This document shows, in pieces, positions 53,614-62,189 of a DNA stretch of 64,000 bases. Made by a program: the position numbers and the translations under genes. The stretch covers positions 1,302,001 through 1,366,000 of the forward strand of contig NZ_CP103289.1 of the NCBI RefSeq assembly GCF_024757985.1. Reading direction: 5' to 3'. The notes under the pieces were generated by a model. That model did no database searches. It was not told the origin of the DNA and saw only the letters and a list, made by a program, of their open reading frames with translations. Within the stretch, counting starts at the first letter, position 1; every line of letters begins with the position of its first letter. Source of the DNA: Cellulomonas sp. NS3 (GTDB lineage Bacteria > Actinomycetota > Actinomycetes > Actinomycetales > Cellulomonadaceae).

Positions 53614-54189
53614 TCAGGCGCGGCGGAGCGGGCGGCGCGCCGGTCCGGGCGCCCCCGCCCGGGCGGGGTCCAGCGGCACAGAGCTGACGAGCGTGGCGGG
53701 GCCCCGCCGCAGGGTCCCCGTCGTCAGCGGGCGGCAGCGCAGACCGCCCCGGCCGCGCATCGCGGTCAGCGCGCCGGGTGCGAGCACGTGGTCCATCCAC
53801 GAGCACGGGGCCGCCGCCGTCGCGGCGCGGAGGCGGACGGCCCCGCCGGGCTGCTCCAGGACGAGCTCCTCGCCGAGCAGCGGGCCCAGCTCGGCGCCGC
53901 GCAGGACGACGTTGCGCCGCGCGCGCAGCGGGTCGAACGGGGGAGCGCCGAGCTCGGCCGCCATCGCCTCGAGCGCCTCGACCGCCAGGAGCGTCACGGC
54001 GGCGTCGGCGTGCGCGGCGCGCCCGAAGAAGCGGTCGCCGACGACCCCCTTGTCCGCGACCACCTCGACGAGCGCGGCGTCGGTCGTCGGGACGTCGGCG
54101 GCACCGTCGCGCGGGCGGCCCGCGTAGGCGTGCCGCGGCGAGACGAGCAGGTGCACGATCTCGACGTCGTACCGGTGCGCCTCGCTCAC
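53614..54189 (-). CDS. MOSC domain protein
   Basis: 191 aa from a GTG start. A beta-barrel MOSC domain is recognised by EIVHLLVSPRHAYAGRP, VVADKGVVGDRFFG and FDPLRARRNVVLRGAELG. MOSC domains bind molybdenum-cofactor sulfur or act on N-hydroxylated substrates. The usual conserved cysteine near the C-terminus may be the Cys in APCSWMDHV. It lies 15 bp downstream of the saccharopine-dehydrogenase-like gene, so they probably share a transcript, but no metabolic link is obvious. The C-terminus is Pro/Arg-rich and probably disordered. Confidence 0.85.
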   Translation of the reverse strand: MSEAHRYDVEIVHLLVSPRHAYAGRPRDGAADVPTTDAALVEVVADKGVVGDRFFGRAAHADAAVTLLAVEALEAMAAELGAPPFDPLRARRNVVLRGAELGPLLGEELVLEQPGGAVRLRAATAAAPCSWMDHVLAPGALTAMRGRGGLRCRPLTTGTLRRGPATLVSSVPLDPARAGAPGPARRPLRRA

Positions 54190-54204
54190 CGGACGAGTCC
54201 GCCC

Positions 54205-55461
54205 TCAGGCCCGCCAGCCCGCCGACACCCGCCGGAGCTCCACGACGTCGTACGTGTGCCCCGCGGCGCGCAGGCGGTCGACGAGGACGTCACCGAGGCC
54301 GGTCGCCGGCGTGAGCGAGCCCGCACGGTCGGGGAGCCGGTCGGTGTCGAGCGCCAGCGCAAGGCCCGCCTCGCCGATCATGACCGCCGTCGCGGCGTAC
54401 CCCGGGTCGCCCTGCGCCGCCGCGACGGCGCGGTAGCGGCGGCCCGACGTCGTGATCGCGTCGGTCTGCATCCGGAACCAGCCCCGGGCACGCGTCTCCT
54501 CGGACGGTCCCGCACCCGGCGCCGGGAGCGCGCGGTCGAGGAGCGCGCGCGTCGGCGGGAACGCCATCGCCGCCGGGAGCAGCCCGCGCGCCGCGGTCAC
54601 CCCGGCCGCCGCCACCGCCCCGCGCACCCCGCGGCCCACCCCCATGACCTCGCCGTAGCGCAGCGAGCGACCGTAGGCCCAGCCCTGCAGCGCGTTGCTG
54701 CGCCGCACGACGCGGCTGTTGAACGACGCCATGAGGAACGGCGCGGTCCAGCGCCCGTCCGGACCCCGGTGCGGCGCGGGGGCGTCCGACGGCTGCGGCA
54801 CCGACGTCTCGGCGGCCCGGTCGGGACTGAGGGAGAACGGGTCCGCGAGGACGCGGCGGGCGTCGGGCGAGCGCAGCGCCTCCTCGACGACCCCGCGCAT
54901 CGACTCGACGGTGCCGCCGCTCAACCCGCCCCGCGCCGTCGCCACGAGGCGGACCTCGCTCAGGGCCCCGGCGTCGTCGGCGGCGCAGCGGCGGTGCAGC
55001 AGCAGGACGCTCAGGTCCGAGGGCACGGAGTCGTACCCGCACGCGTGCACGAGGCGCGCGCCCGTCCGGCGGGCGACGGCGTCGAACCGGTCGGCCGCCT
55101 CGCGGACGAACAGGACCTCGCCGGTCAGGTCGGCGTAGTGCGTGCCCGCGCGGGCGCACGCCTCGACGAGCGGCAGCCCGTGCCGTGCGTACGGGCCGAC
55201 CGTCGTCACGACGGCGCGGGTGGCACCGGCGAGAGCGGCGAGCGACGCGTCGTCGTGCGCGTCGGCGACGAGCAGCGGCCAGTCGTGCGCCCGCGCGGGG
55301 AGCCCCGCGCGGACCTCGGCCAGGCGTGCCCGCGACCGCCCCGCGAGCGCGATGCGGGCCGCCGGTGGCGCGTGCTCCGCGAGGTGCGCGGCGACGAGCC
55401 GGCCCACGAAGCCGGTCGCGCCGTGCAGGACCAGGTCGTGCTCACGCTCGGGGCTCGTCAT
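54205..55461 (-). CDS. Saccharopine dehydrogenase/trans-enoyl reductase-like protein
   Basis: 418 aa. An N-terminal Rossmann fold (REHDLVLHGATGFVGRLVAA, ARIALAGRSRARLAEVRAG) has the GxTGFxG motif of the saccharopine-dehydrogenase-like family that includes the mycobacterial trans-acting enoyl reductase Rv2953. YARHGLPLVEACARAGTHYA and TGEVLFVREAADRFDAVA are also typical. It most likely reduces or oxidises a lipid-related substrate with NAD(P). The start ATG at 55461 follows a GTCAT context without a strong ribosome site. It is cotranscribed with the MOSC gene. Confidence 0.85.
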   Translation of the reverse strand: MTSPEREHDLVLHGATGFVGRLVAAHLAEHAPPAARIALAGRSRARLAEVRAGLPARAHDWPLLVADAHDDASLAALAGATRAVVTTVGPYARHGLPLVEACARAGTHYADLTGEVLFVREAADRFDAVARRTGARLVHACGYDSVPSDLSVLLLHRRCAADDAGALSEVRLVATARGGLSGGTVESMRGVVEEALRSPDARRVLADPFSLSPDRAAETSVPQPSDAPAPHRGPDGRWTAPFLMASFNSRVVRRSNALQGWAYGRSLRYGEVMGVGRGVRGAVAAAGVTAARGLLPAAMAFPPTRALLDRALPAPGAGPSEETRARGWFRMQTDAITTSGRRYRAVAAAQGDPGYAATAVMIGEAGLALALDTDRLPDRAGSLTPATGLGDVLVDRLRAAGHTYDVVELRRVSAGWRA

Positions 55462-55671
55462 CGCGCGATGCTCGCGTGCCGTGCGGGGCCGCGCAACCGC
55501 TCCCGGCGGGCGTGCTCGACCGCTCCAGGCGGGGCCCGCCCGCCGGGGAGCAGGAAGGGGCAAAGGGGCAGCCCGCCGCGCCGGTGCGGGGGTGTCGCGG
55601 TGCTGCCGTCGGCGGGACGATGGGGGACCGCCGCCGGCGTCGGGCCGGTGGCCCGGTCGGTGGAGGCCCCG

Positions 55672-56052
55672 GTGGACTTCAGGCTCGAGCTCGTGATCGT
55701 CCCGGTCAGCGACGTGGACCGGGCCAAGGCGTTCTACGCGGACCGGCTGGGGTTCGGCGTCGACCAGGACAACGTGGTCGCGGAGGGCCTGCGGTTCGTT
55801 CAGGTGACGCCGCCCGGCTCGGCGTGCTCGATCGCCTTCGGGCTCGGCCTCTCGGATGCGGCGCCCGGGTCGGTGCGCGGGCTCCAGGTGGTCGTCGACG
55901 ACGCGGACGCGACCCGCGACTACCTGCTCGCGCGCGGGATCCCGGCACCGCCCGTCGAGGACTTCCCGTGGGGCCGCTTCACCGGGTTCGAGGACCCGGA
56001 CGGCAACGCGTGGTCGGTCCAGCAGCTGCCCGACCGGTCGGGCGGGGGCTGA
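55672..56052 (+). CDS. VOC (glyoxalase-like) protein
   Basis: 126 aa from the GTG at 55672, with GGAGG five bases upstream. A glyoxalase/bleomycin-resistance fold of two modules: FRLELVIVPVSDVDRAKAFY then ADRLGFGVDQDN and, in the C-half, RGLQVVVDDADATRDYLLAR then GFEDPDGNAWSVQQLP. Metal ligand positions are uncertain. This group often acts on small cofactors or confers tolerance to oxidants. A longer in-frame GTG at 55660 is possible. It is divergent from the saccharopine-dehydrogenase-like gene, and about 200 bp separate it from the copper-protein gene downstream. Confidence 0.85.
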   Translation: MDFRLELVIVPVSDVDRAKAFYADRLGFGVDQDNVVAEGLRFVQVTPPGSACSIAFGLGLSDAAPGSVRGLQVVVDDADATRDYLLARGIPAPPVEDFPWGRFTGFEDPDGNAWSVQQLPDRSGGG

Positions 56053-56256
56053 CGCGCGGTGCCCGGTGCGGACGCGCCGGTACGGTCGCGCGCGCCCGCT
56101 CGCCCCGCCCGGTCGGGCGGCTGCGCACGCTCCGGCCCGCACCCGCGTGCGACCCGGCAGGCTCCGCCCTAGCGTGGAGGGGTCATCGGCGGTGCGCGTC
56201 CCCACCGGCACGACGGGCGTCCTCCGCCTCCGGAGCCACGTCCGCAGGAGGACGCC

Positions 56257-56658
56257 ATGCAGACCGCCACGATGATGAGGAGCCACCCCGCCCCGACCGC
56301 CCTGGACCGCGGGCTGCTCGCGCGCGTGATCGACGTCGCGATCGAGTGCGCCCAGGCGTGCTCGGCGTGCGCCGACGCCTGTCTCGCCGAGGAGACGGTC
56401 GCGGACCTGCGGAAGTGCATCCGCAGCGACCTCGACTGCGCGGACGTGTGCGAGACGACGGGCCGGGTGCTGTCCCGGCACACGGGCTTCGACGCGAACG
56501 TGACGCGCGCGCTGCTCGCCGCGTGCATCGCCGCGTGCGTCGCGTGCGGCGACGAGTGCGAGCAGCACGCCGGGATGCACGAGCACTGCCGGGTCTGCGC
56601 CGAGGCGTGCCGGGCGTGCGAGGCGGCGTGCGGCGAGCTGCTCGCGGCGATCGGCTGA
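56257..56658 (+). CDS. Cysteine-rich four-helix copper-storage protein (DUF326)
   Basis: 133 aa from the ATG at 56257, with AGGAGG upstream. Sixteen cysteines, mostly as CxxxC or CxxC along predicted helices (ECAQACSACADAC, CIAACVACGDEC, CRVCAEACRACEAAC), match the DUF326/Csp family of copper-storage four-helix bundles, where thiolates lining the bundle bind many Cu(I) ions. No signal peptide, so it is a cytosolic Csp3-type protein. The -10-like TAGCGT at 56170-56175 may be its promoter. No copper-responsive repressor gene adjoins it. Confidence 0.92.
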   Translation: MQTATMMRSHPAPTALDRGLLARVIDVAIECAQACSACADACLAEETVADLRKCIRSDLDCADVCETTGRVLSRHTGFDANVTRALLAACIAACVACGDECEQHAGMHEHCRVCAEACRACEAACGELLAAIG

Positions 56659-56665
56659 GCGGGGG

Positions 56666-56687
56666 GCGAGCGCCCGAGAGGGCTCGC
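56666..56687. terminator. Hairpin between convergent copper-protein and NAD-kinase-like genes
   Basis: Stem GCGAGC(g)CC / GGGCTCGC, 8 bp with one bulge and a short GAGA-containing loop, between two convergent stop codons. Probably a bidirectional terminator. Confidence 0.45.
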
Positions 56688-56695
56688 TGGGGCCG

Positions 56696-57598
56696 TCAGA
56701 CCACGAGCTGGAGCCGGCGGCCGGCCAGACCCACGCGCACGGTCTGGCCCCACGTGGCGGTCAGCCGGTCCGCCTCCAGGCCGTCGCCGAAGACGACCAG
56801 CGACTCCGAGCCGACGACGAGGCCGAGCTCGGCGCCCGCGGCCAGCGTCCCCGCGGTGAGCGTCGTCCCGGTGCTCGGCGAGGGCCACGCCTCGCGCACG
56901 AACCACGCCAGCGCGGAGTCCCCGGGGCCCGGGAGCGGGGGAGCGTCGGCCCGTCCCCGGGCGAGCGACACGGCCCACCCGGTGGCGCCCGTCCCGGTCG
57001 TCACCACGACGCCCGAGGAGGACTGCGCCTCGCTCGCGCCGCCCGGGACGTGCAGCGCGTACCGGGCGGACTGGTGACCCGCGTGGCCGACGTAGACGTC
57101 GTTGAGCGCCTCGAGGGACGTGCCGTCGTCGAGCGACGCGCGCACGAGGGCCCGGGGCTCGACGCGTGCCGTGCCGCGCACGACCGCGTCGAGCACCCGC
57201 GCGACCGTCGTGGGGCGGTGGCGCACGAGGGCGCCGGGGTTGCGCCCGGGCTCGGGGTCGACGCCCACGACCGGCTGGGAGCCGACGTACTTGGCGGTGT
57301 TCGCGACGAGGCCGTCGGGCCCCACGACGACGCAGACGTCCTGCGGCTCGAACGCGAAGCGGTGCAGGTCGTCGCGGTCGACGTCCCCGCGCCGCCAGTG
57401 TGCCGGGACGGCGGCCCGGGTCCGGGCGAGCGCGTCGGCGAGGGCGTCGTGGCTCGCCTGCACCTCGGCGAGGCCGCGGCCGCGCGTGCGCAGGAAGAAC
57501 TCGGCCTGGCCGCGGGTGCCGTGGCGGTCGACGAGCTCGTCGAGCGCGCTGCGGCGGTGCACGACGACCGCGCGCGGGGCGAGCGTCACGTCACTCAC
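56696..57598 (-). CDS. NAD kinase-like protein
   Basis: 300 aa from a GTG overlapping the SPFH gene by 8 bp. Motifs are recognisably those of NAD/diacylglycerol kinase folds but altered: the GGDGT site reads GPDGLVANTAKYVG, NE reads ALNDVYVGH and TPTGSTAY reads TTGTGATGWAVS. The N-terminal 75 residues (RSALDELVDRHGTRGQAEFF and RGRGLAEVQASHDALADAL) are an added helical part. It could phosphorylate NAD, a related nucleotide, or only bind one. Its operon mate is an SPFH protein and its divergent neighbour an NrtR-like Nudix regulator, so an NAD/ADP-ribose link is plausible; activity is unproven. Confidence 0.78.
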   Translation of the reverse strand: MSDVTLAPRAVVVHRRSALDELVDRHGTRGQAEFFLRTRGRGLAEVQASHDALADALARTRAAVPAHWRRGDVDRDDLHRFAFEPQDVCVVVGPDGLVANTAKYVGSQPVVGVDPEPGRNPGALVRHRPTTVARVLDAVVRGTARVEPRALVRASLDDGTSLEALNDVYVGHAGHQSARYALHVPGGASEAQSSSGVVVTTGTGATGWAVSLARGRADAPPLPGPGDSALAWFVREAWPSPSTGTTLTAGTLAAGAELGLVVGSESLVVFGDGLEADRLTATWGQTVRVGLAGRRLQLVV

Positions 57599-58595
57599 CC
57601 CGCCCGGCCGTCAGCGCGGTGAGCGCCCCGGTGAGCGCGTCCGGGGTGAGCGTGAGCTGCCCGATCGCGGGCAGGTTCCCGGCGAGCTCGCGCAGCGCCA
57701 CCGCGAGCAGGACCTCGCGCGGCACGTCGGCGTAGGCGGCCATGCGGGCGCTCTCGGCGGCGCCCTCGGCCTCGCCCTGCAGCCGCGCCGCCTCGGCCGC
57801 GGCGGCGGCCAGCACGCGCTGCCGGTCCGCGTGCGCACGGGCCTCGATGAGCGCGGCGGCGGCGGCCTCGTCCGCCCGGGCCCGCGCGTTGGTGCCCTCC
57901 TGGGCGACGAGCTGCTGCTCGCGGCCTGCGAGCTCGATGCGGTTGGTCATCTCGTTCTCGGCGATCGCACGCTCGCGCTCGACGGCCAGCGCGCGCCGCT
58001 CGAACGTCGACCGCTCGGCCTCCGACTGCGCCTGCTCGCGGGCGGGGGTCTGCAGCGCGCGCTCGAGGTCGGCGTCCGCCCGGACGGAGCCGATCCGGGC
58101 GCCGAGGACGCGCAGCCCGGTCGCGGCGACCCGGTCGTCGGCGAGCAGCGCCGCGGTGACCCGCGCGCGCAGCGGCCCGGTGCCCGAGGAGATCGCCTCG
58201 CGCAGCGTGCTGCCCGCGAGGGCGTCCATGACGTGCCTCGACGCGAGCTCGCCGAGCAGGTGCGCGACCTGGTCGAGCGGGCTCGCGGTCCACGCGCCGG
58301 TGCCGGGGTCGATGCCGAAGTCGAGCCGCCGCGCGACGAGCTCGGGGTCCTCGAAGCGGTAGCTGACGGTGACCTGGGCGGTGACCTCCTGGAGGTCGGC
58401 GGTCCGGGCACGGGCCACGAGGGGCAGCTCATGGTCGTCGACGGGGACCTCCGACAGCACCGCGGTGAGGGGGCGGAACCAGAACGAGAGCCCGGTGCCG
58501 GACCGTCGGACGGCTCCGCCGCGCAGCTGCACCACGTGCGAGGTGGGGGCCGTCCGGAGGTGCCGGACGAAGGGGTAGCGGGTGATCGTGGCCAC
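57591..58595 (-). CDS. SPFH/band 7 domain protein
   Basis: 334 aa from the GTG at 58595, with AGAGGAGA upstream. It has no N-terminal membrane helix. The SPFH (band 7) domain lies at about 25-175 (LSFWFRPLTAVLSEVPVDD then VTAQVTVSYRFEDPELVARR). A long coiled coil follows (about 195-290: SEAERSTFERRALAVERERA, EQQLVAQEGTNARARADEAA). This resembles flotillin/stomatin-type scaffolds and bacterial SPFH proteins without membrane spans. It overlaps the start of the NAD-kinase-like gene, so the two are translationally coupled and may form one complex. The role is unknown. Confidence 0.85.
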   Translation of the reverse strand: MATITRYPFVRHLRTAPTSHVVQLRGGAVRRSGTGLSFWFRPLTAVLSEVPVDDHELPLVARARTADLQEVTAQVTVSYRFEDPELVARRLDFGIDPGTGAWTASPLDQVAHLLGELASRHVMDALAGSTLREAISSGTGPLRARVTAALLADDRVAATGLRVLGARIGSVRADADLERALQTPAREQAQSEAERSTFERRALAVERERAIAENEMTNRIELAGREQQLVAQEGTNARARADEAAAAALIEARAHADRQRVLAAAAAEAARLQGEAEGAAESARMAAYADVPREVLLAVALRELAGNLPAIGQLTLTPDALTGALTALTAGRGE

Positions 58596-58612
58596 GGGGT
58601 CTCCTCTGTATG

Positions 58613-58660
58613 TCGTCGAGATGACGATAAAGCGCCCCTGGTTAATCGTCAAGTCGACGA
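58613..58660. promoter_or_regulatory. Twin NrtR-like operators over SPFH operon promoter
   Basis: Two copies of TCGTC-N5-GACGA, at 58613-58627 and 58646-58660, are 33 bp apart (about three helical turns). On the minus strand a promoter TTGACG (58652-58647) N17 TATCGT (58629-58624) runs into the SPFH gene; the upstream operator covers its -35 and the downstream one its -10. On the plus strand a TATAGA (58661-58666) could serve the Nudix gene. The layout predicts repression of both genes by the divergent NrtR-like protein. Sequence is seen directly; regulator binding is inferred. Confidence 0.75.
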
Positions 58661-58675
58661 TATAGAGTGGCCGGC

Positions 58676-59377
58676 ATGGATGGTCGCGCCTACTCGCCCT
58701 CCGCGTACCCCCGGTTCGCGGTGACCGTGGACCTCGTCGTGCTCACGCTGCGCGCCGGGACGCTGGAGGTCCTCCTCGTCGAGCGCGGCGAGGAGCCGTT
58801 CCGCGGGCAGCGGGCGCTCCCCGGCGGGTTCGTGCGCCCGGACGAGGGGCTCGACGCCGCCGCGGAGCGCGAGCTCGCCGAGGAGACCGGGCTGCGGGAC
58901 GTCCCGGGTCACCTCGAGCAGCTCGGCTCGTACGGGGAGCCCGGCCGCGACCCGCGGATGCGGGTCGTGTCCGTCGCGTACCTCGCGCTCGCCCCCGACC
59001 TGCCCGAGCCCCGCGCCGGGACGGACGCGGCCGCCGCCGACTGGGTCCCGGTCGACGCGGCGCTCGGCGCCCCGCTCGCGTTCGACCACGCGCGCGTGCT
59101 GACCGACGGGCTCGAACGGGCGCGCGCGAAGCTCGAGTACAGCCCGCTCGCGACCGCCTTCTGTCCGCCGGAGTTCACCGTGGCCCAGCTCCGCCAGGTG
59201 TACGAGAGCGTGTGGGGGCAGCGCCTCGACCCCCGCAACTTCCACCGCAAGGTCACGGGCGCGCCGGGGTTCCTCGTCGACACCGGCCGCACCCGCACCG
59301 AGGGTCGGGGTCGGCCCGCCACCGTGTACCGCCGCGGTGACGCGACCGTCCTGCACCCGCCGCTCGCGCGCGAGTGA
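58676..59377 (+). CDS. NrtR-like Nudix/winged-helix regulator
   Basis: 233 aa from the ATG at 58676 (a GTG nine bases earlier is possible). The N-terminal Nudix domain has a complete Nudix box (GGFVRPDEGLDAAAERELAE followed by ETGL) and the core VDLVVLTLRAGTLEVLLVER. The C-terminal winged helix (about 160-225: FTVAQLRQVYESVWGQRL then DPRNFHRKV) matches NrtR regulators that sense ADP-ribose and control NAD metabolism. Retention of the full box means it could also hydrolyse ADP-ribose. It is divergent from the SPFH and NAD-kinase-like operon, with two operators between. The transcript would be nearly leaderless. Confidence 0.88.
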   Translation: MDGRAYSPSAYPRFAVTVDLVVLTLRAGTLEVLLVERGEEPFRGQRALPGGFVRPDEGLDAAAERELAEETGLRDVPGHLEQLGSYGEPGRDPRMRVVSVAYLALAPDLPEPRAGTDAAAADWVPVDAALGAPLAFDHARVLTDGLERARAKLEYSPLATAFCPPEFTVAQLRQVYESVWGQRLDPRNFHRKVTGAPGFLVDTGRTRTEGRGRPATVYRRGDATVLHPPLARE

Positions 59378-59488
59378 CCGCCCGGCGCACGCGTGCGGGC
59401 CGCGCCCTCCCGTCCTAGCGTGAGCACCGCGTGCGGCACGGCGCGCTGCGGCGTCGGGGCGGTCCGCGGGCCGAGGTGAGGGAGCCAG

Positions 59489-61102
59489 GTGGTGGCAGCA
59501 CGGGAGCGGAAGACCGGCGAGCTCGAGACCTACCAGGCGATGCGTGACTTCGCCCGCACGCCCGAGCCGTCGGGCACACCCGCGCCCGCTCCCGACGACG
59601 GGCGGCGGCGCTTCGTCGTGCAGCGCCACCGCGCCCGCCGCCTGCACTACGACGTCCGCTTCGAGATCGACGGCGTGCTCGTGAGCTGGGCGGTGCCGCG
59701 CGGGCCGACGCTCGACCCGAAGGTCCGGCGCATGGCGGTGCACGTCGAGGACCACCCGCTCGAGTACGAGGACTTCGAGGGCGTCATCCCGTCCGGCGAG
59801 TACGGCGGCGGCGACGTCATCGTGTGGGACCGGGGGACGTGGGAGCCGTACAAGAGCGACGACCCCGGCGCCGAGGTCGCGGCGGGCGAGCTGCACGTCG
59901 AGGTGCACGGGTCGAAGCTGCGCGGGCGGTTCGTCCTCGTGCGCAGCGGCGGGCCCGACGCGCACGGCAAGGAGCAGTGGCTGCTGCTGCACAAGCGGGA
60001 CGAGCACGCCGTCGAGGGCTGGGACGCCGAGGACCACCCGCACTCGGTGCTGAGCGGCCGGACGAACGACGAGGTGCGGGCCGACCCCGACCGGCTCTGG
60101 CGCTCCGACCTCCCCGCGGCGGAGGCCTCGGTCGCGCTGCACGCCGAGGCCGCCGCGCCGACCGACGAGGAGCTGGCCGCGCTCGACGACCTCGGCTCGG
60201 GCGGGACGTGGGAGGTGCACGGGCGGCGGCTCAAGGTCACGAACCTCGACAAGGTGCTGTTCCCGGCCCGGCCCGGCGAGGAGCCCGTGACCAAGCGCGA
60301 GCTCGTCCGCTACGCCGCCCGGATCGCCCCGGTCGTGCTGCCCTACCTGCGGGGCCGCGCGCTCAACATGCACCGGTTCCCGCAGGGTGCGGGCGGCTCG
60401 GGGTTCTGGCACAAGGAGCTCCCCGGGCACGCGCCCGACTGGCTGCCGCGGTGGGACCGGCCCGACGTCGAGCCGGGCGACACGCGCACGTACCTCGTGG
60501 TCGACGAGCCCGCCGCGCTCGTCTGGGCCGCGAACTTCGGGGCACTCGAGTGGCACGCGTGGACGTCGCCGGCGGCCGAGCCGCAGCGCCCGAGCTACGC
60601 CCTCGTCGACCTCGACCCGGGCACGTCGACCGCGTGGGAGGACGTCGTGCTCCTCGCGCGCCTGCACCGCGACGCGTTCGCGCACCTCGGCGTGCGGGCC
60701 CAGCCCAAGCTCACCGGCCGGCGCGGCATCCAGATCTGGATCCCGATCGCGCCCGGCCCGGGGTTCGACGACACGCGCGCGTGGGTCGAGCGCGTCTCGC
60801 GCACGGTCGGCGCCGTCGTGCCCGAGCTGGTGAGCTGGCGGTGGGGCGTGCACGAGCGCGGCGGGCTCGCGCGGCTCGACTACACGCAGAACGCGATCAA
60901 CAAGACCCTCGTGGCGCCGTACAGCCCGCGCGCGGCGGCCGGGGGGCCGGTGTCCGCGCCCATCACGTGGGACGAGCTCGACGAGGACTGGCTCCGGCCC
61001 GACGCGTTCACGCTCCGCACGGTGCTGGACCGGGTCGCGGAGCGCGGGGACCCGTTCCGGACGGTGCTCGCCCGCGACCAGGCGCTGCCGCCGCTCACCT
61101 GA
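59489..61102 (+). CDS. ligD: LigD-type phosphoesterase-polymerase, ligase domain absent
   Basis: 537 aa from a GTG start. Two LigD domains are complete: the 3'-phosphoesterase (about 40-190: VVQRHRARRLHYDVRFEI, GVLVSWAVPRGPTLD, HVEDHPLEYEDFEGVIPSGE) and the AEP polymerase/primase (about 235-520: KVTNLDKVLFPARPGEEPVT, PSYALVDLDPGTS, TGRRGIQIWIPIAP). The DxD of the polymerase is in DLDPG. The ATP-dependent ligase domain is missing, and no separate ligase or Ku gene is seen in the window. It probably processes and fills break ends for NHEJ together with genes elsewhere, or works in another repair path. A -10-like TAGCGT precedes it (59416). Confidence 0.92.
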   Translation: MVAARERKTGELETYQAMRDFARTPEPSGTPAPAPDDGRRRFVVQRHRARRLHYDVRFEIDGVLVSWAVPRGPTLDPKVRRMAVHVEDHPLEYEDFEGVIPSGEYGGGDVIVWDRGTWEPYKSDDPGAEVAAGELHVEVHGSKLRGRFVLVRSGGPDAHGKEQWLLLHKRDEHAVEGWDAEDHPHSVLSGRTNDEVRADPDRLWRSDLPAAEASVALHAEAAAPTDEELAALDDLGSGGTWEVHGRRLKVTNLDKVLFPARPGEEPVTKRELVRYAARIAPVVLPYLRGRALNMHRFPQGAGGSGFWHKELPGHAPDWLPRWDRPDVEPGDTRTYLVVDEPAALVWAANFGALEWHAWTSPAAEPQRPSYALVDLDPGTSTAWEDVVLLARLHRDAFAHLGVRAQPKLTGRRGIQIWIPIAPGPGFDDTRAWVERVSRTVGAVVPELVSWRWGVHERGGLARLDYTQNAINKTLVAPYSPRAAAGGPVSAPITWDELDEDWLRPDAFTLRTVLDRVAERGDPFRTVLARDQALPPLT

Positions 61103-61119
61103 ACCCGGCGACGGCGTCC

Positions 61120-61752
61120 TCAGGTGCCGCGCGACTGCCCGAGCGTCGCGAGCAGGTCCTCGTGCAGCTCGAACCAGACCGTGTGGCACGAGTCCTCGCC
61201 GGTGCGGTTGACCCAGCTCCCGTCGCCCGCCAGGACGCGGTCGAGCGCGGCGGAGAACCGGCGGTCGTACCCGCCGAAGCGGTCGAGCACCCCCGTGAGC
61301 CGGTGCACGAGTGCGACCAGCGCACGGGCGAGCTCGTCGAGCTCGGAGACGACCATCCCGTCCCACGCGGGGTCCGTGTGGTCGTTCTCCGCGAGCGGGT
61401 CACCGGGCCGCGGGCGCAGCTGCCAGCTCGTGCAGGCGCTCTGCAGCCGGTCGTTGAGCGGCAGGAACGCCGCGTAGGTCGCCGCCACCGCCTCGTGCCC
61501 GCCCGGCACGGCGGCCAGCTCCGCGGCGAGGAGCTGCTCGCCGTGCGCGCGCCCGCGGTCGGTCGGCGACCAGCCGCCGAGCCCGGCGAACTCCGACCAG
61601 GCGACGTGACCGAGCGCCTGGAGGTCCAGGAGCAGCTCCTCGACGGCGCCCGGGTCGAGCGCGAAGCGGCGCGCGGTCGCCGCGGTGTCGGTGAAGCCGC
61701 GCAGCCGGACGGCGTGCAGGACGAGCAGCTCGTCCGACGACGCGCGCGTCAC
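61120..61752 (-). CDS. Hypothetical winged-helix-like protein
   Basis: 210 aa from the GTG at 61752, which overlaps the upstream stop (GTGA). I do not recognise a named family. The first 75 residues look like a winged helix-turn-helix: ELLVLHAVRLRGFTDTAATA, VEELLLDLQALGHVAWSEFA then LGGWSPTDRGRAHGE. The rest is helical and aromatic (NDRLQSACTSWQLRP, WVNRTGEDSCHTVWFELHED). Co-translated with the HTH-like gene at 61749-62189, so the two probably act together. A DNA-binding or maleylpyruvate-isomerase-like role is only a guess. Confidence 0.65.
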   Translation of the reverse strand: MTRASSDELLVLHAVRLRGFTDTAATARRFALDPGAVEELLLDLQALGHVAWSEFAGLGGWSPTDRGRAHGEQLLAAELAAVPGGHEAVAATYAAFLPLNDRLQSACTSWQLRPRPGDPLAENDHTDPAWDGMVVSELDELARALVALVHRLTGVLDRFGGYDRRFSAALDRVLAGDGSWVNRTGEDSCHTVWFELHEDLLATLGQSRGT

Positions 61753-62189
61753 GTGGTCCGCCCGCGGTCGTCGCGCCCGCGGCGCGCCAGCAGGCGGTCG
61801 AGACGCTGCTGGCACGCCTGCGGGGAGTTCATGCCCAGCGCGTCCGCCATCTGCGCCCAGGTCAGGCCGGCGCCGCGCGCGGTGAACAGGAGCGCGGTCT
61901 CGACCTGGTCGAGCTCGGCGCGCGCGGCGGGCAGCAGCGCGAGGGCGGCGCGGGCCGCGTCGGGGCCGTCCGGGCCGTCGAGGCCGGTGCCGCCGGGGTC
62001 GCCGCGGCCGGACCACCAGAGGAAGAAGCGGACGAGGTCGACCGCGGAGGGCGGCATCCCGGCGGGCTCCCACGGGCGCGCGTCGAGGTCCGCCGCGCCC
62101 AGCTCGAGCAGCAGCGTGCGGGCGCTGCTCTCGTCGCCGGCCCGGACCTGGTCGGCCCGCGCGGTCCGCGCGGGGTCGTTGTGCTCCAC
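61749..62189 (-). CDS. Small HTH-containing putative DNA-binding protein
   Basis: 146 aa from the GTG at 62189; the ATGs at 62207 and 62204 lie inside the operator-like palindrome and would be poor starts. A helical N-terminal part (SSARTLLLELGAADL, SAVDLVRFFLWWSGRG) precedes a C-terminal helix-turn-helix (LTWAQMADALGMNSPQACQQ then RLDRLL) of sigma-region-4/WhiH-like appearance. The gene lies directly beside a 37-bp palindrome and is divergent from a PEP-utilising enzyme gene, so it is a plausible regulator of that gene and of itself. Its stop overlaps the start of the following gene. No named family was recognised. Confidence 0.7.
   Translation of the reverse strand: MEHNDPARTARADQVRAGDESSARTLLLELGAADLDARPWEPAGMPPSAVDLVRFFLWWSGRGDPGGTGLDGPDGPDAARAALALLPAARAELDQVETALLFTARGAGLTWAQMADALGMNSPQACQQRLDRLLARRGRDDRGRTT

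What the first reader, a model, noticed from the sequence alone, without database searches (positions are those of the whole stretch)
56696..59377. NrtR-controlled SPFH plus NAD-kinase-like operon: candidate NAD(P)/ADP-ribose system
Seen: a coupled pair (8-bp overlap) of a coiled-coil SPFH protein and an altered NAD-kinase-like protein, divergent from an NrtR-like regulator with a complete Nudix box; twin TCGTC-N5-GACGA operators cover the operon's -35 and -10. Known: NrtR senses ADP-ribose and represses NAD genes. Inference: a scaffold-associated nucleotide enzyme induced by ADP-ribose rise, perhaps a stress or defence response. I know of no described system of this composition.
Basis: partly seen in the sequence, partly recalled or inferred. 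Interest (0 to 1): 0.78.

Follow-up and report, generated by a model that had tools for sequence, protein, structure and literature searches.

The report
NAD-regulated SPFH and NAD-kinase-like pair
A repressor of the kind that watches NAD breakdown guards a two-gene unit, found in several bacterial phyla, that makes a scaffold-type protein together with an undescribed relative of the human mitochondrial NAD kinase.

Summary
Three genes are present: an NAD-kinase-superfamily protein and a soluble SPFH protein overlapping by 8 bp, divergent from an NrtR-type regulator with an intact Nudix box. Twin palindromes cover the only promoter-like site; they are the only two such sites in the 4.78-Mb genome.

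The set reaches far beyond the genus. Among 198 genomes of the order, strong matches to the two paired genes fall in the same 25 genomes, side by side; NrtR is adjacent in 22. The arrangement recurs in Rhizobium and Methylomonas. The same operator precedes nicotinate phosphoribosyltransferase genes in four genomes of another genus, tying the circuit to NAD metabolism.

The kinase-like protein is not an ordinary NAD kinase: GGDG reads G[Q/P]DG in 50 of 50 aligned members. The other catalytic residues checked are kept or replaced as in NADK2, its nearest solved relative. The host also has a normal NAD kinase.

Best reading: an NAD-turnover-induced, scaffold-associated NAD(H)-kinase-like enzyme. 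Defence is not supported. Activity, effector and SPFH contact are inferred. No held paper joins SPFH with NAD kinase.

The parts
56696..57598 (-). NAD-kinase-superfamily protein (300 aa), nearest to NADK2; motif GPDGL (family consensus GQDGLVAN), ND, TGTGATGW; likely NAD(H)-kinase-like enzyme
57591..58595 (-). soluble SPFH/Band 7 protein (334 aa) with a long helix and conserved C-terminal tail; GTG start, no transmembrane segment seen
   Evidence: Band_7 52.9 bits; model pLDDT 88.1, helix 175-288; Foldseek best HflK/HflC, stomatin, erlin, also flotillin, prohibitin, vault protein; maximum 19-residue hydropathy 1.56 or lower in 31 of 31 relatives
57591..57598 (-). 8-bp overlap of the SPFH stop and the kinase-like start (translational coupling, inferred)
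58667..59377 (+). NrtR-type regulator: Nudix domain with intact Nudix box plus NrtR winged helix (GTG 58667 or ATG 58676)
   Evidence: Pfam NUDIX and NrtR_WHD over cut-off; NCBIfam NrtR 7.8e-39, 133.6 bits against a cut-off of 400; PDB best 3gz5 5.1e-44
58643..58663 (.). operator 1, palindrome over the -35 of the SPFH promoter and next to the regulator start
58610..58630 (.). operator 2, palindrome over the -10 of the SPFH promoter
58624..58652 (-). promoter-like site TTGACG-17-TATCGT of the SPFH/kinase-like operon
   Evidence: only site found in 56400-59600, shuffles mean 0.0

Best explanation
The locus is a self-contained NAD-regulon module. In resting cells the NrtR-type repressor sits on two palindromes that overlay the -35 and -10 of the SPFH promoter and lie just upstream of its own start, so it blocks the operon and probably itself. 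When NAD+ is broken down, the Nudix domain binds a product, most likely ADP-ribose, and the repressor lets go; with its intact Nudix box it may also hydrolyse that ligand and so reset itself. The operon then makes, in coupled fashion, a soluble SPFH protein that oligomerises into a ring or cage-like scaffold, and an NADK2-like enzyme that works on or in that scaffold. The enzyme most likely transfers phosphate (from ATP or polyphosphate) to the 2'-OH of NAD(H), giving NADP(H) beside the ordinary house-keeping NAD kinase. Shown: genes, predicted fold, retained catalytic residues, operator architecture, linkage, and operator sharing with NAD salvage genes in relatives. Inferred: ligand, repression, self-reset, scaffold assembly, physical contact, substrate and donor.
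For: Regulator: NUDIX plus NrtR_WHD; nearest PDB relative 3gz5. Operator: only two sites in the genome; 61 of 65 loci with adjacent NrtR have at least one site and 56 of 65 have two, against 10 of 230 control windows. NAD link: the same operator upstream of nicotinate phosphoribosyltransferase genes in 4 genomes of one genus (the site listing was capped), one of which (G711) has a single NrtR at E<=1e-40, of the triad type; host paralog behind pncB- and pncA-like genes with TTATGGTC-N5-GACCATCA before the first; M. smegmatis NrtR box GTTTTCGA-N7-TCGAAAAC, released by 50 mM ADP-ribose (PMC6800001, passages). Obligate pair: 25 of 198 order genomes have strong matches to both genes, adjacent; no genome has a strong match to one alone. 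Enzyme: fold of NAD kinases, NADK2 first; D95 50/50, N166 50/50, E/D167 50/50, T206 49/50, W208 50/50, positions that PMC8553519 (passages) lists as vital in M. tuberculosis NAD kinase, with W as in NADK2. Constraint: dN/dS about 0.15 (kinase-like) and 0.06 (SPFH) against one close relative.
Against: The second Gly of GGDG, which PMC8553519 describes as part of a motif found in all NAD kinases, is Q or P in 50 of 50, so donor, acceptor or even catalysis may differ. PF01513 does not see the protein. The host already has a GGDGT NAD kinase. Regulation is not universal: 7 of 14 loci without adjacent NrtR have no operator and 4 of 65 with NrtR have none; of 12 genomes without adjacent NrtR, 11 have a full NrtR-type match elsewhere (E<=2e-45) but one (G552) has none better than 4e-9; of 6 such relocated regulators inspected, 4 have the operator before them and 2 (L169, L171) do not. 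C. glutamicum NrtR is reported to bind DNA better with NAD+ (PMC6800001, passages), so the ligand cannot be carried over safely. Nothing here shows SPFH-enzyme contact. In three of the four genomes with an operator before the phosphoribosyltransferase another NrtR paralog exists, so which one binds there is open. 31 of 173 genomes without the pair also have at least one 21-bp match somewhere.
Confidence: 0.48

Rival explanations
1. The enzyme is a kinase of the same fold with another acceptor or donor: it phosphorylates ADP-ribose, NADH or another dinucleotide, or uses polyphosphate only, so the operon detoxifies or traps a breakdown product instead of making NADP.
For: Conserved change of GGDGT to G[Q/P]DGL and a family-only VRE[AP][WFY]PS segment; the regulator type responds to ADP-ribose in M. 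smegmatis; NADK2, the nearest solved relative, accepts polyphosphate (PMC8553519, passages).
Against: Residues that matter for activity in ordinary NAD kinases are kept; GGDGL is reported in alpha-proteobacterial NAD kinases, so the Leu alone is not a sign of another substrate.
Confidence: 0.25
2. The kinase-like protein is not an enzyme but a nucleotide-binding sensor that opens or closes the SPFH assembly according to NAD(P) or ADP-ribose.
For: Changed phosphate-loop motif in 50 of 50; one-to-one pairing with SPFH and correlated divergence, r 0.92 over 60 loci (shared ancestry alone can give much of this).
Against: The catalytic Asp and the N-E/D pair are invariant, which a pure binder would not obviously need.
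Confidence: 0.15
3. The set is an anti-phage or conflict system that senses NAD depletion.
For: Nudix domains are named among NAD-linked conflict components (PMC7159879, one passage); patchy distribution, 25 of 198 genomes of the order; relatives in 57 records of the plasmid collection.
Against: No PADLOC hit on SPFH or kinase-like and only a weak Nudix hit on the regulator (E 0.0046); no neighbour beyond the triad in more than 3 of 38 one-per-genus loci; scattered PADLOC hits among 140 of 236 flanking ORFs, at most 2 per family, no background run; no copy found in 50,697 phage records or in viral contigs; operator shared with NAD salvage.
Confidence: 0.06
4. Chance neighbours: an ordinary NAD kinase, an unrelated SPFH protein and a stray regulator.
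For: None found.
Against: Identical sets of 25 genomes, adjacency, cross-phylum recurrence, dedicated operators.
Confidence: 0.01

Closest known systems
NrtR regulators of NAD metabolism (M. smegmatis MsNrtR, Shewanella SoNrtR)
   Same: Nudix domain plus NrtR winged helix; divergent arrangement on the target; palindromic operator similar in form to GTTTTCGA-N7-TCGAAAAC of MsNrtR
   Different: target is an SPFH/kinase-like pair rather than NAD synthesis or salvage; Nudix box intact in 21 of 21, whereas MsNrtR is reported with a less conserved Nudix motif and no detectable hydrolase activity
Human mitochondrial NAD kinase NADK2 (C5orf33)
   Different: NADK2 keeps GGDGT; here G[Q/P]DGL; bacterial, with SPFH partner; about 21% identity over the aligned fold
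Bacterial NAD kinase (PF01513; host gene at G000:C1:2065067)
   Same: overall fold, catalytic Asp, N-E/D pair
   Different: GGDG motif not met, PF01513 and NCBIfam cut-offs not reached
SPFH proteins (HflK/HflC, stomatin, erlin, flotillin, prohibitin, major vault protein)
   Same: SPFH domain followed by a long helix
   Different: no transmembrane segment seen; gene partner is an NAD-kinase-like protein, not FtsH or NfeD (those partners recalled and seen in titles)

Membership tests
NrtR family regulator | Nudix domain fused to NrtR winged-helix domain | tested here: met
   PF00293 74.8 bits and PF21906 59 bits, both over cut-off
NrtR family regulator | palindromic operators of NrtR form at its own intergenic region | tested here: met
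   two sites here only; same form before the paralog's pncB-like gene and before relatives' NAPRTase genes; binding itself not tested
NrtR family regulator | NCBIfam equivalog cut-off for the ADPR-responsive NrtR | tested here: not met
   133.6 bits against 400
NrtR family regulator | release from DNA by ADP-ribose | not testable with these tools
   needs gel shift or fluorescence with ADP-ribose
NAD kinase (PF01513 / NadK) | NAD kinase fold | tested here: met
   model pLDDT 92.7; the 50 best PDB rows shown are NAD kinases
NAD kinase (PF01513 / NadK) | GGDG motif | tested here: not met
   G[Q/P]DG in 50 of 50; Asp kept
NAD kinase (PF01513 / NadK) | NE/D short motif | tested here: met
   N 50/50 followed by E 40 or D 10
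NAD kinase (PF01513 / NadK) | Pfam gathering score | tested here: not met
   no match at E<=1; not among the host's two PF01513 places
NAD kinase (PF01513 / NadK) | NAD+ 2'-phosphorylation | not testable with these tools
   needs enzyme assay
NADK2 | closest profile and fold match among solved structures | tested here: met
NADK2 | GGDGT motif | tested here: not met
   GPDGL here
SPFH / Band 7 family | PF01145 over cut-off | tested here: met
   52.9 against 23.6 bits
SPFH / Band 7 family | oligomeric ring or cage | not testable with these tools
   single-chain model only
SPFH / Band 7 family | membrane anchor (many but not all members) | tested here: not met
   no strongly hydrophobic segment, maximum KD19 at most 1.56 in 31 of 31
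known anti-phage defence system | match to a PADLOC model for SPFH or kinase-like protein | tested here: not met
   no match at E<=1

The most novel reading that the evidence does not exclude
A widespread, unnamed bacterial enzyme family, whose nearest solved relative is the human mitochondrial NAD kinase NADK2, always works with its own soluble SPFH cage, and the pair is switched on by ADP-ribose as the effector arm of the NAD regulon: a cage-associated NADP-making (possibly polyphosphate-using) compartment that answers NAD+ breakdown, with the SPFH-NADK2-like pairing older than the split of Actinomycetota, Pseudomonadota and Spirochaetota or spread among them.
Probability: 0.25. Interest if true: 0.82.

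Novelty: new variant of a known kind. Interest (0 to 1): 0.62.

Why it matters
It extends NAD regulons from synthesis and salvage to an undescribed enzyme-scaffold pair, gives a function hypothesis to a family that annotators now call "sugar kinase", "ATP-NAD kinase PpnK-type" or "hypothetical protein", and offers a bacterial relative of NADK2 in which a link between an SPFH scaffold and NADP supply can be tested simply. If the enzyme is active, many bacteria carry a second, inducible NAD kinase that genome models miss.

Tried and rejected
Bare operator 15-mer as a regulon probe: rejected, 80 sites in the genome; the 21-bp form was used instead.

SPFH-kinase gene fusion: one apparent fusion (L080) lies at an N in a metagenome assembly, so it is not counted.

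Defence-island test: no recurrent neighbours (the largest non-triad clusters reach 3 of 38 loci), Pfam and PADLOC tallies on 140 of 236 flanking ORFs. No background set was run, so lack of enrichment is seen, not measured.

Phage or viral origin: no match (the viral scan used two short patterns). RNA elements: none at gathering score in 54000-62000. Weak kinase-profile matches in the phylum (69 of 91 genomes) are partial and were taken as ordinary NAD kinases without checking each. A perfect palindrome in G570 lies at the start of an integrase-like ORF, near a phosphoribosyltransferase gene but beyond its 3' end, and was judged chance. Extra sites in G722 and G566 gave no clear NAD gene. In the tree the L165 and L161 branches are odd (long or misplaced) and were not interpreted.

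Operators outside Actinomycetota: clear in Acinetobacter and Proteus, a different perfect palindrome in Cupriavidus, only a short one-mismatch palindrome in Rhizobium, none with these settings in Methylomonas or Roseomonas. No NrtR-type gene was found in the Roseomonas locus (L155).

G711 has the triad-type regulator and operator but neither partner gene was found.
Full report
WHAT IS THERE. The window lies in a one-contig 4.78-Mb genome (G000:C1:1302001-1366000) whose best named relatives are Cellulomonas and other Actinomycetota. Three genes fill 56696-59377: an NAD-kinase-like protein and an SPFH protein on the minus strand, overlapping by 8 bp, and a divergent Nudix/winged-helix regulator on the plus strand. 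Between the two units lie two palindromes. The only sigma-70-like promoter found in 56400-59600, TTGACG-17-TATCGT, sits exactly under them, one on the -35 and one on the -10.

IS IT MORE THAN CHANCE? The 15-base core is common in this GC-rich genome, 80 sites. The 21-base palindrome TTATCGTC-N5-GACGATAA with up to two mismatches is found at two places in the whole genome, both here, with none for the reversed control. Of 79 actinobacterial loci that could be examined (80 fetched, one cut by its contig end), 65 have the regulator adjacent. Of those 65, 61 have at least one site with at most one core mismatch and 56 have two, most often 34 or 45 bp apart. Of the 14 without adjacent regulator, 1 has two sites, 6 have one and 7 have none. 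Ten of 230 control windows have a site. The majority letters around 83 exact-core sites are GTTATCGTCA-N3-TGACGA-n-AAC, the position n being mixed (C 30, G 21, T 19, A 13).

HOW FAR DOES THE SET REACH? In 80 loci returned (best 80 of 249, so query-biased) SPFH lies next to the kinase-like gene in 80 of 80. A less biased test used 198 genomes of the order. Strong SPFH matches (E<1e-100) and strong kinase-like matches (E<1e-60) fall in the same 25 genomes, side by side in each. The regulator is adjacent and divergent in 22 of the 25 (in one, G017, with an 0.8-kb gap) and elsewhere in the genome in the other 3. Weaker hits in other genomes (4 for SPFH, 16 for kinase-like) are short or partial; one, G677, may be a remnant. 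Twenty of the 25 have two or more 21-base operators somewhere in the genome, against 4 of the 173 others; at least one site is found in 22 of 25 and in 31 of 173. In 396 genomes of the phylum 22 have a strong kinase-like match (E of about 1e-36 or better, one of them split); in 150 of the family, 50 do.

BEYOND THE PHYLUM. Of 72,556 plasmid records, 57 encode a relative. Rhizobium etli p42f and a Methylomonas plasmid have the same order, NUDIX / SPFH / "sugar kinase", and their regulators carry NrtR_WHD over cut-off, as does the one in Acinetobacter lwoffii. In Treponema saccharophilum the SPFH and kinase-like genes are adjacent and an NrtR-type gene lies about 4 kb away. Roseomonas has SPFH plus the kinase-like frame but no NrtR-type gene in the stretch fetched. 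The signature GQDGLVAN is shared by the Alpha-, Beta- and Gammaproteobacteria and Treponema copies read. The Acinetobacter operator has the same build with other letters, GTTAATGTC-N5-GACACTAAC; Methylomonas and Roseomonas gave no palindrome with the settings used.

THE LINK TO NAD. (a) The host's second NrtR-like gene (282.8 bits) follows genes that match nicotinate phosphoribosyltransferase and an isochorismatase-fold nicotinamidase candidate. TTTATGGTCAGTTCGACCATCAA lies about 30 bp before the first of them: the same build as the operator here with one base of the half-site changed. A second look-alike, TTATGGTC-ATCAT-GACCACAA, is visible in the same printed stretch over the called start. 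(b) In four genomes of one related genus (G604, G639, G689, G711) the operator of this locus stands about 50-60 bp upstream of nicotinate phosphoribosyltransferase (Pfam domain over cut-off in 4 of 4; NCBIfam 668 bits, over cut-off, for the one tested), followed by an isochorismatase-fold, nicotinamidase-like gene (Pfam over cut-off in 2 of 2 tested; NCBIfam nicotinamidase 117.7 bits, under its cut-off). (c) G711 has one NrtR at E<=1e-40; it falls among triad regulators with support 1.0 and has the operator in front of itself, although the SPFH and kinase-like genes were not found there. (d) In G615 the operator lies about 0.3 kb upstream of the called start of a NadR-like NMN adenylyltransferase (150.9 bits, below cut-off). 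(e) Of 12 genomes with the pair but without adjacent regulator, 11 have a full NrtR-type match elsewhere and one (G552) has not. In four Streptomyces-type genomes (L164, L166-L168) that regulator groups with triad regulators (support 0.92) and keeps the operator before its own start; in two others inspected (L169, L171) no operator was seen. Together these points tie the circuit to NAD metabolism by sequence alone. M. smegmatis NrtR binds GTTTTCGA-N7-TCGAAAAC and is released by ADP-ribose, at 50 mM (PMC6800001, passages read); the same passages report that the C. glutamicum protein binds better with NAD+.

THE SPFH PROTEIN. Band_7 52.9 bits; SPFH fold, a helix of about 114 residues and a conserved tail. 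Foldseek's first matches are HflK/HflC-type, stomatin and erlin chains, with flotillin, prohibitin and vault protein below. No transmembrane segment is visible in 31 of 31. That SPFH proteins build rings and cages is general knowledge and is suggested by the titles; it was not tested for this one.

SELECTION AND COUPLING. Against one close relative (L004), dN and dS are about 0.031 and 0.209 for the kinase-like gene and 0.012 and 0.185 for SPFH. Distances of the three proteins over 60 loci correlate (0.92, 0.87, 0.91; 0 of 1000 permutations each); common descent alone can produce much of that.

WHAT IT MOST LIKELY DOES. The regulator holds the operon off and is released by a product of NAD+ breakdown; an SPFH scaffold and an NADK2-like enzyme are then made together and raise NADP(H), or handle a related nucleotide, locally. 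The regulatory half is well supported by sequence; the enzymatic half is inference from fold and residues.

DEFENCE? The three proteins have no PADLOC match apart from a weak Nudix one (E 0.0046); flanking genes differ from genus to genus; no phage or viral copy was found. Defence stays possible but unsupported.

PRIOR WORK. Full-text searches for NrtR+SPFH, NAD kinase+SPFH domain+Nudix, SPFH+sugar kinase variants, band 7 protein+ATP-NAD kinase and SPFH+NAD kinase found no paper in the held library. SPFH+ADP-ribose+operon+Nudix found two; passages of one (PMC7159879) do not describe such a set, the other (PMC1524935) was seen as listing only. The 161 papers holding NrtR were seen as a listing of 30, of which one was read in passages. 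The 2008 NrtR regulon paper is not held and may mention parts of this.

CHANGES ON CHECKING. 

Noticed in passing
L158, L159, L160 (plasmid-collection records of Acinetobacter lwoffii, uncultured HHV216, Proteus mirabilis): The kinase-like gene, with SPFH whole (L160), shortened (L158) or not annotated (L159), and in L158 also the NUDIX gene, lies directly beside tet(H) or tet(J); the set appears to travel with these segments.
   Followed up: partly
G000:C1:4424624-4424767: A second PF01513 match over cut-off (29.7 bits) in the host genome, in a 398-aa frame; identity not checked.
   Followed up: no
G000:C1:3240205-3243061 (L196): NAD salvage cluster: nicotinate phosphoribosyltransferase, nicotinamidase-like gene and a second NrtR-type regulator, with its own palindromes before the first gene.
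   Followed up: yes
window 59489-61102: Next to the regulator: a LigD-type protein with 3'-phosphoesterase and primase-polymerase domains; no ligase domain was reported by Pfam. Not a recurrent neighbour of the set.
   Followed up: no
window 56257-56658: Cys-rich DUF326 protein just downstream of the operon.
   Followed up: no
L202 (G615:C61): The operator stands near a gene resembling NadR-type NMN adenylyltransferase, a possible further NAD target in that genome.
   Followed up: partly
L162:8133-9197: In Methylomonas a second NUDIX hydrolase gene is the next gene beyond the kinase-like gene.
   Followed up: no
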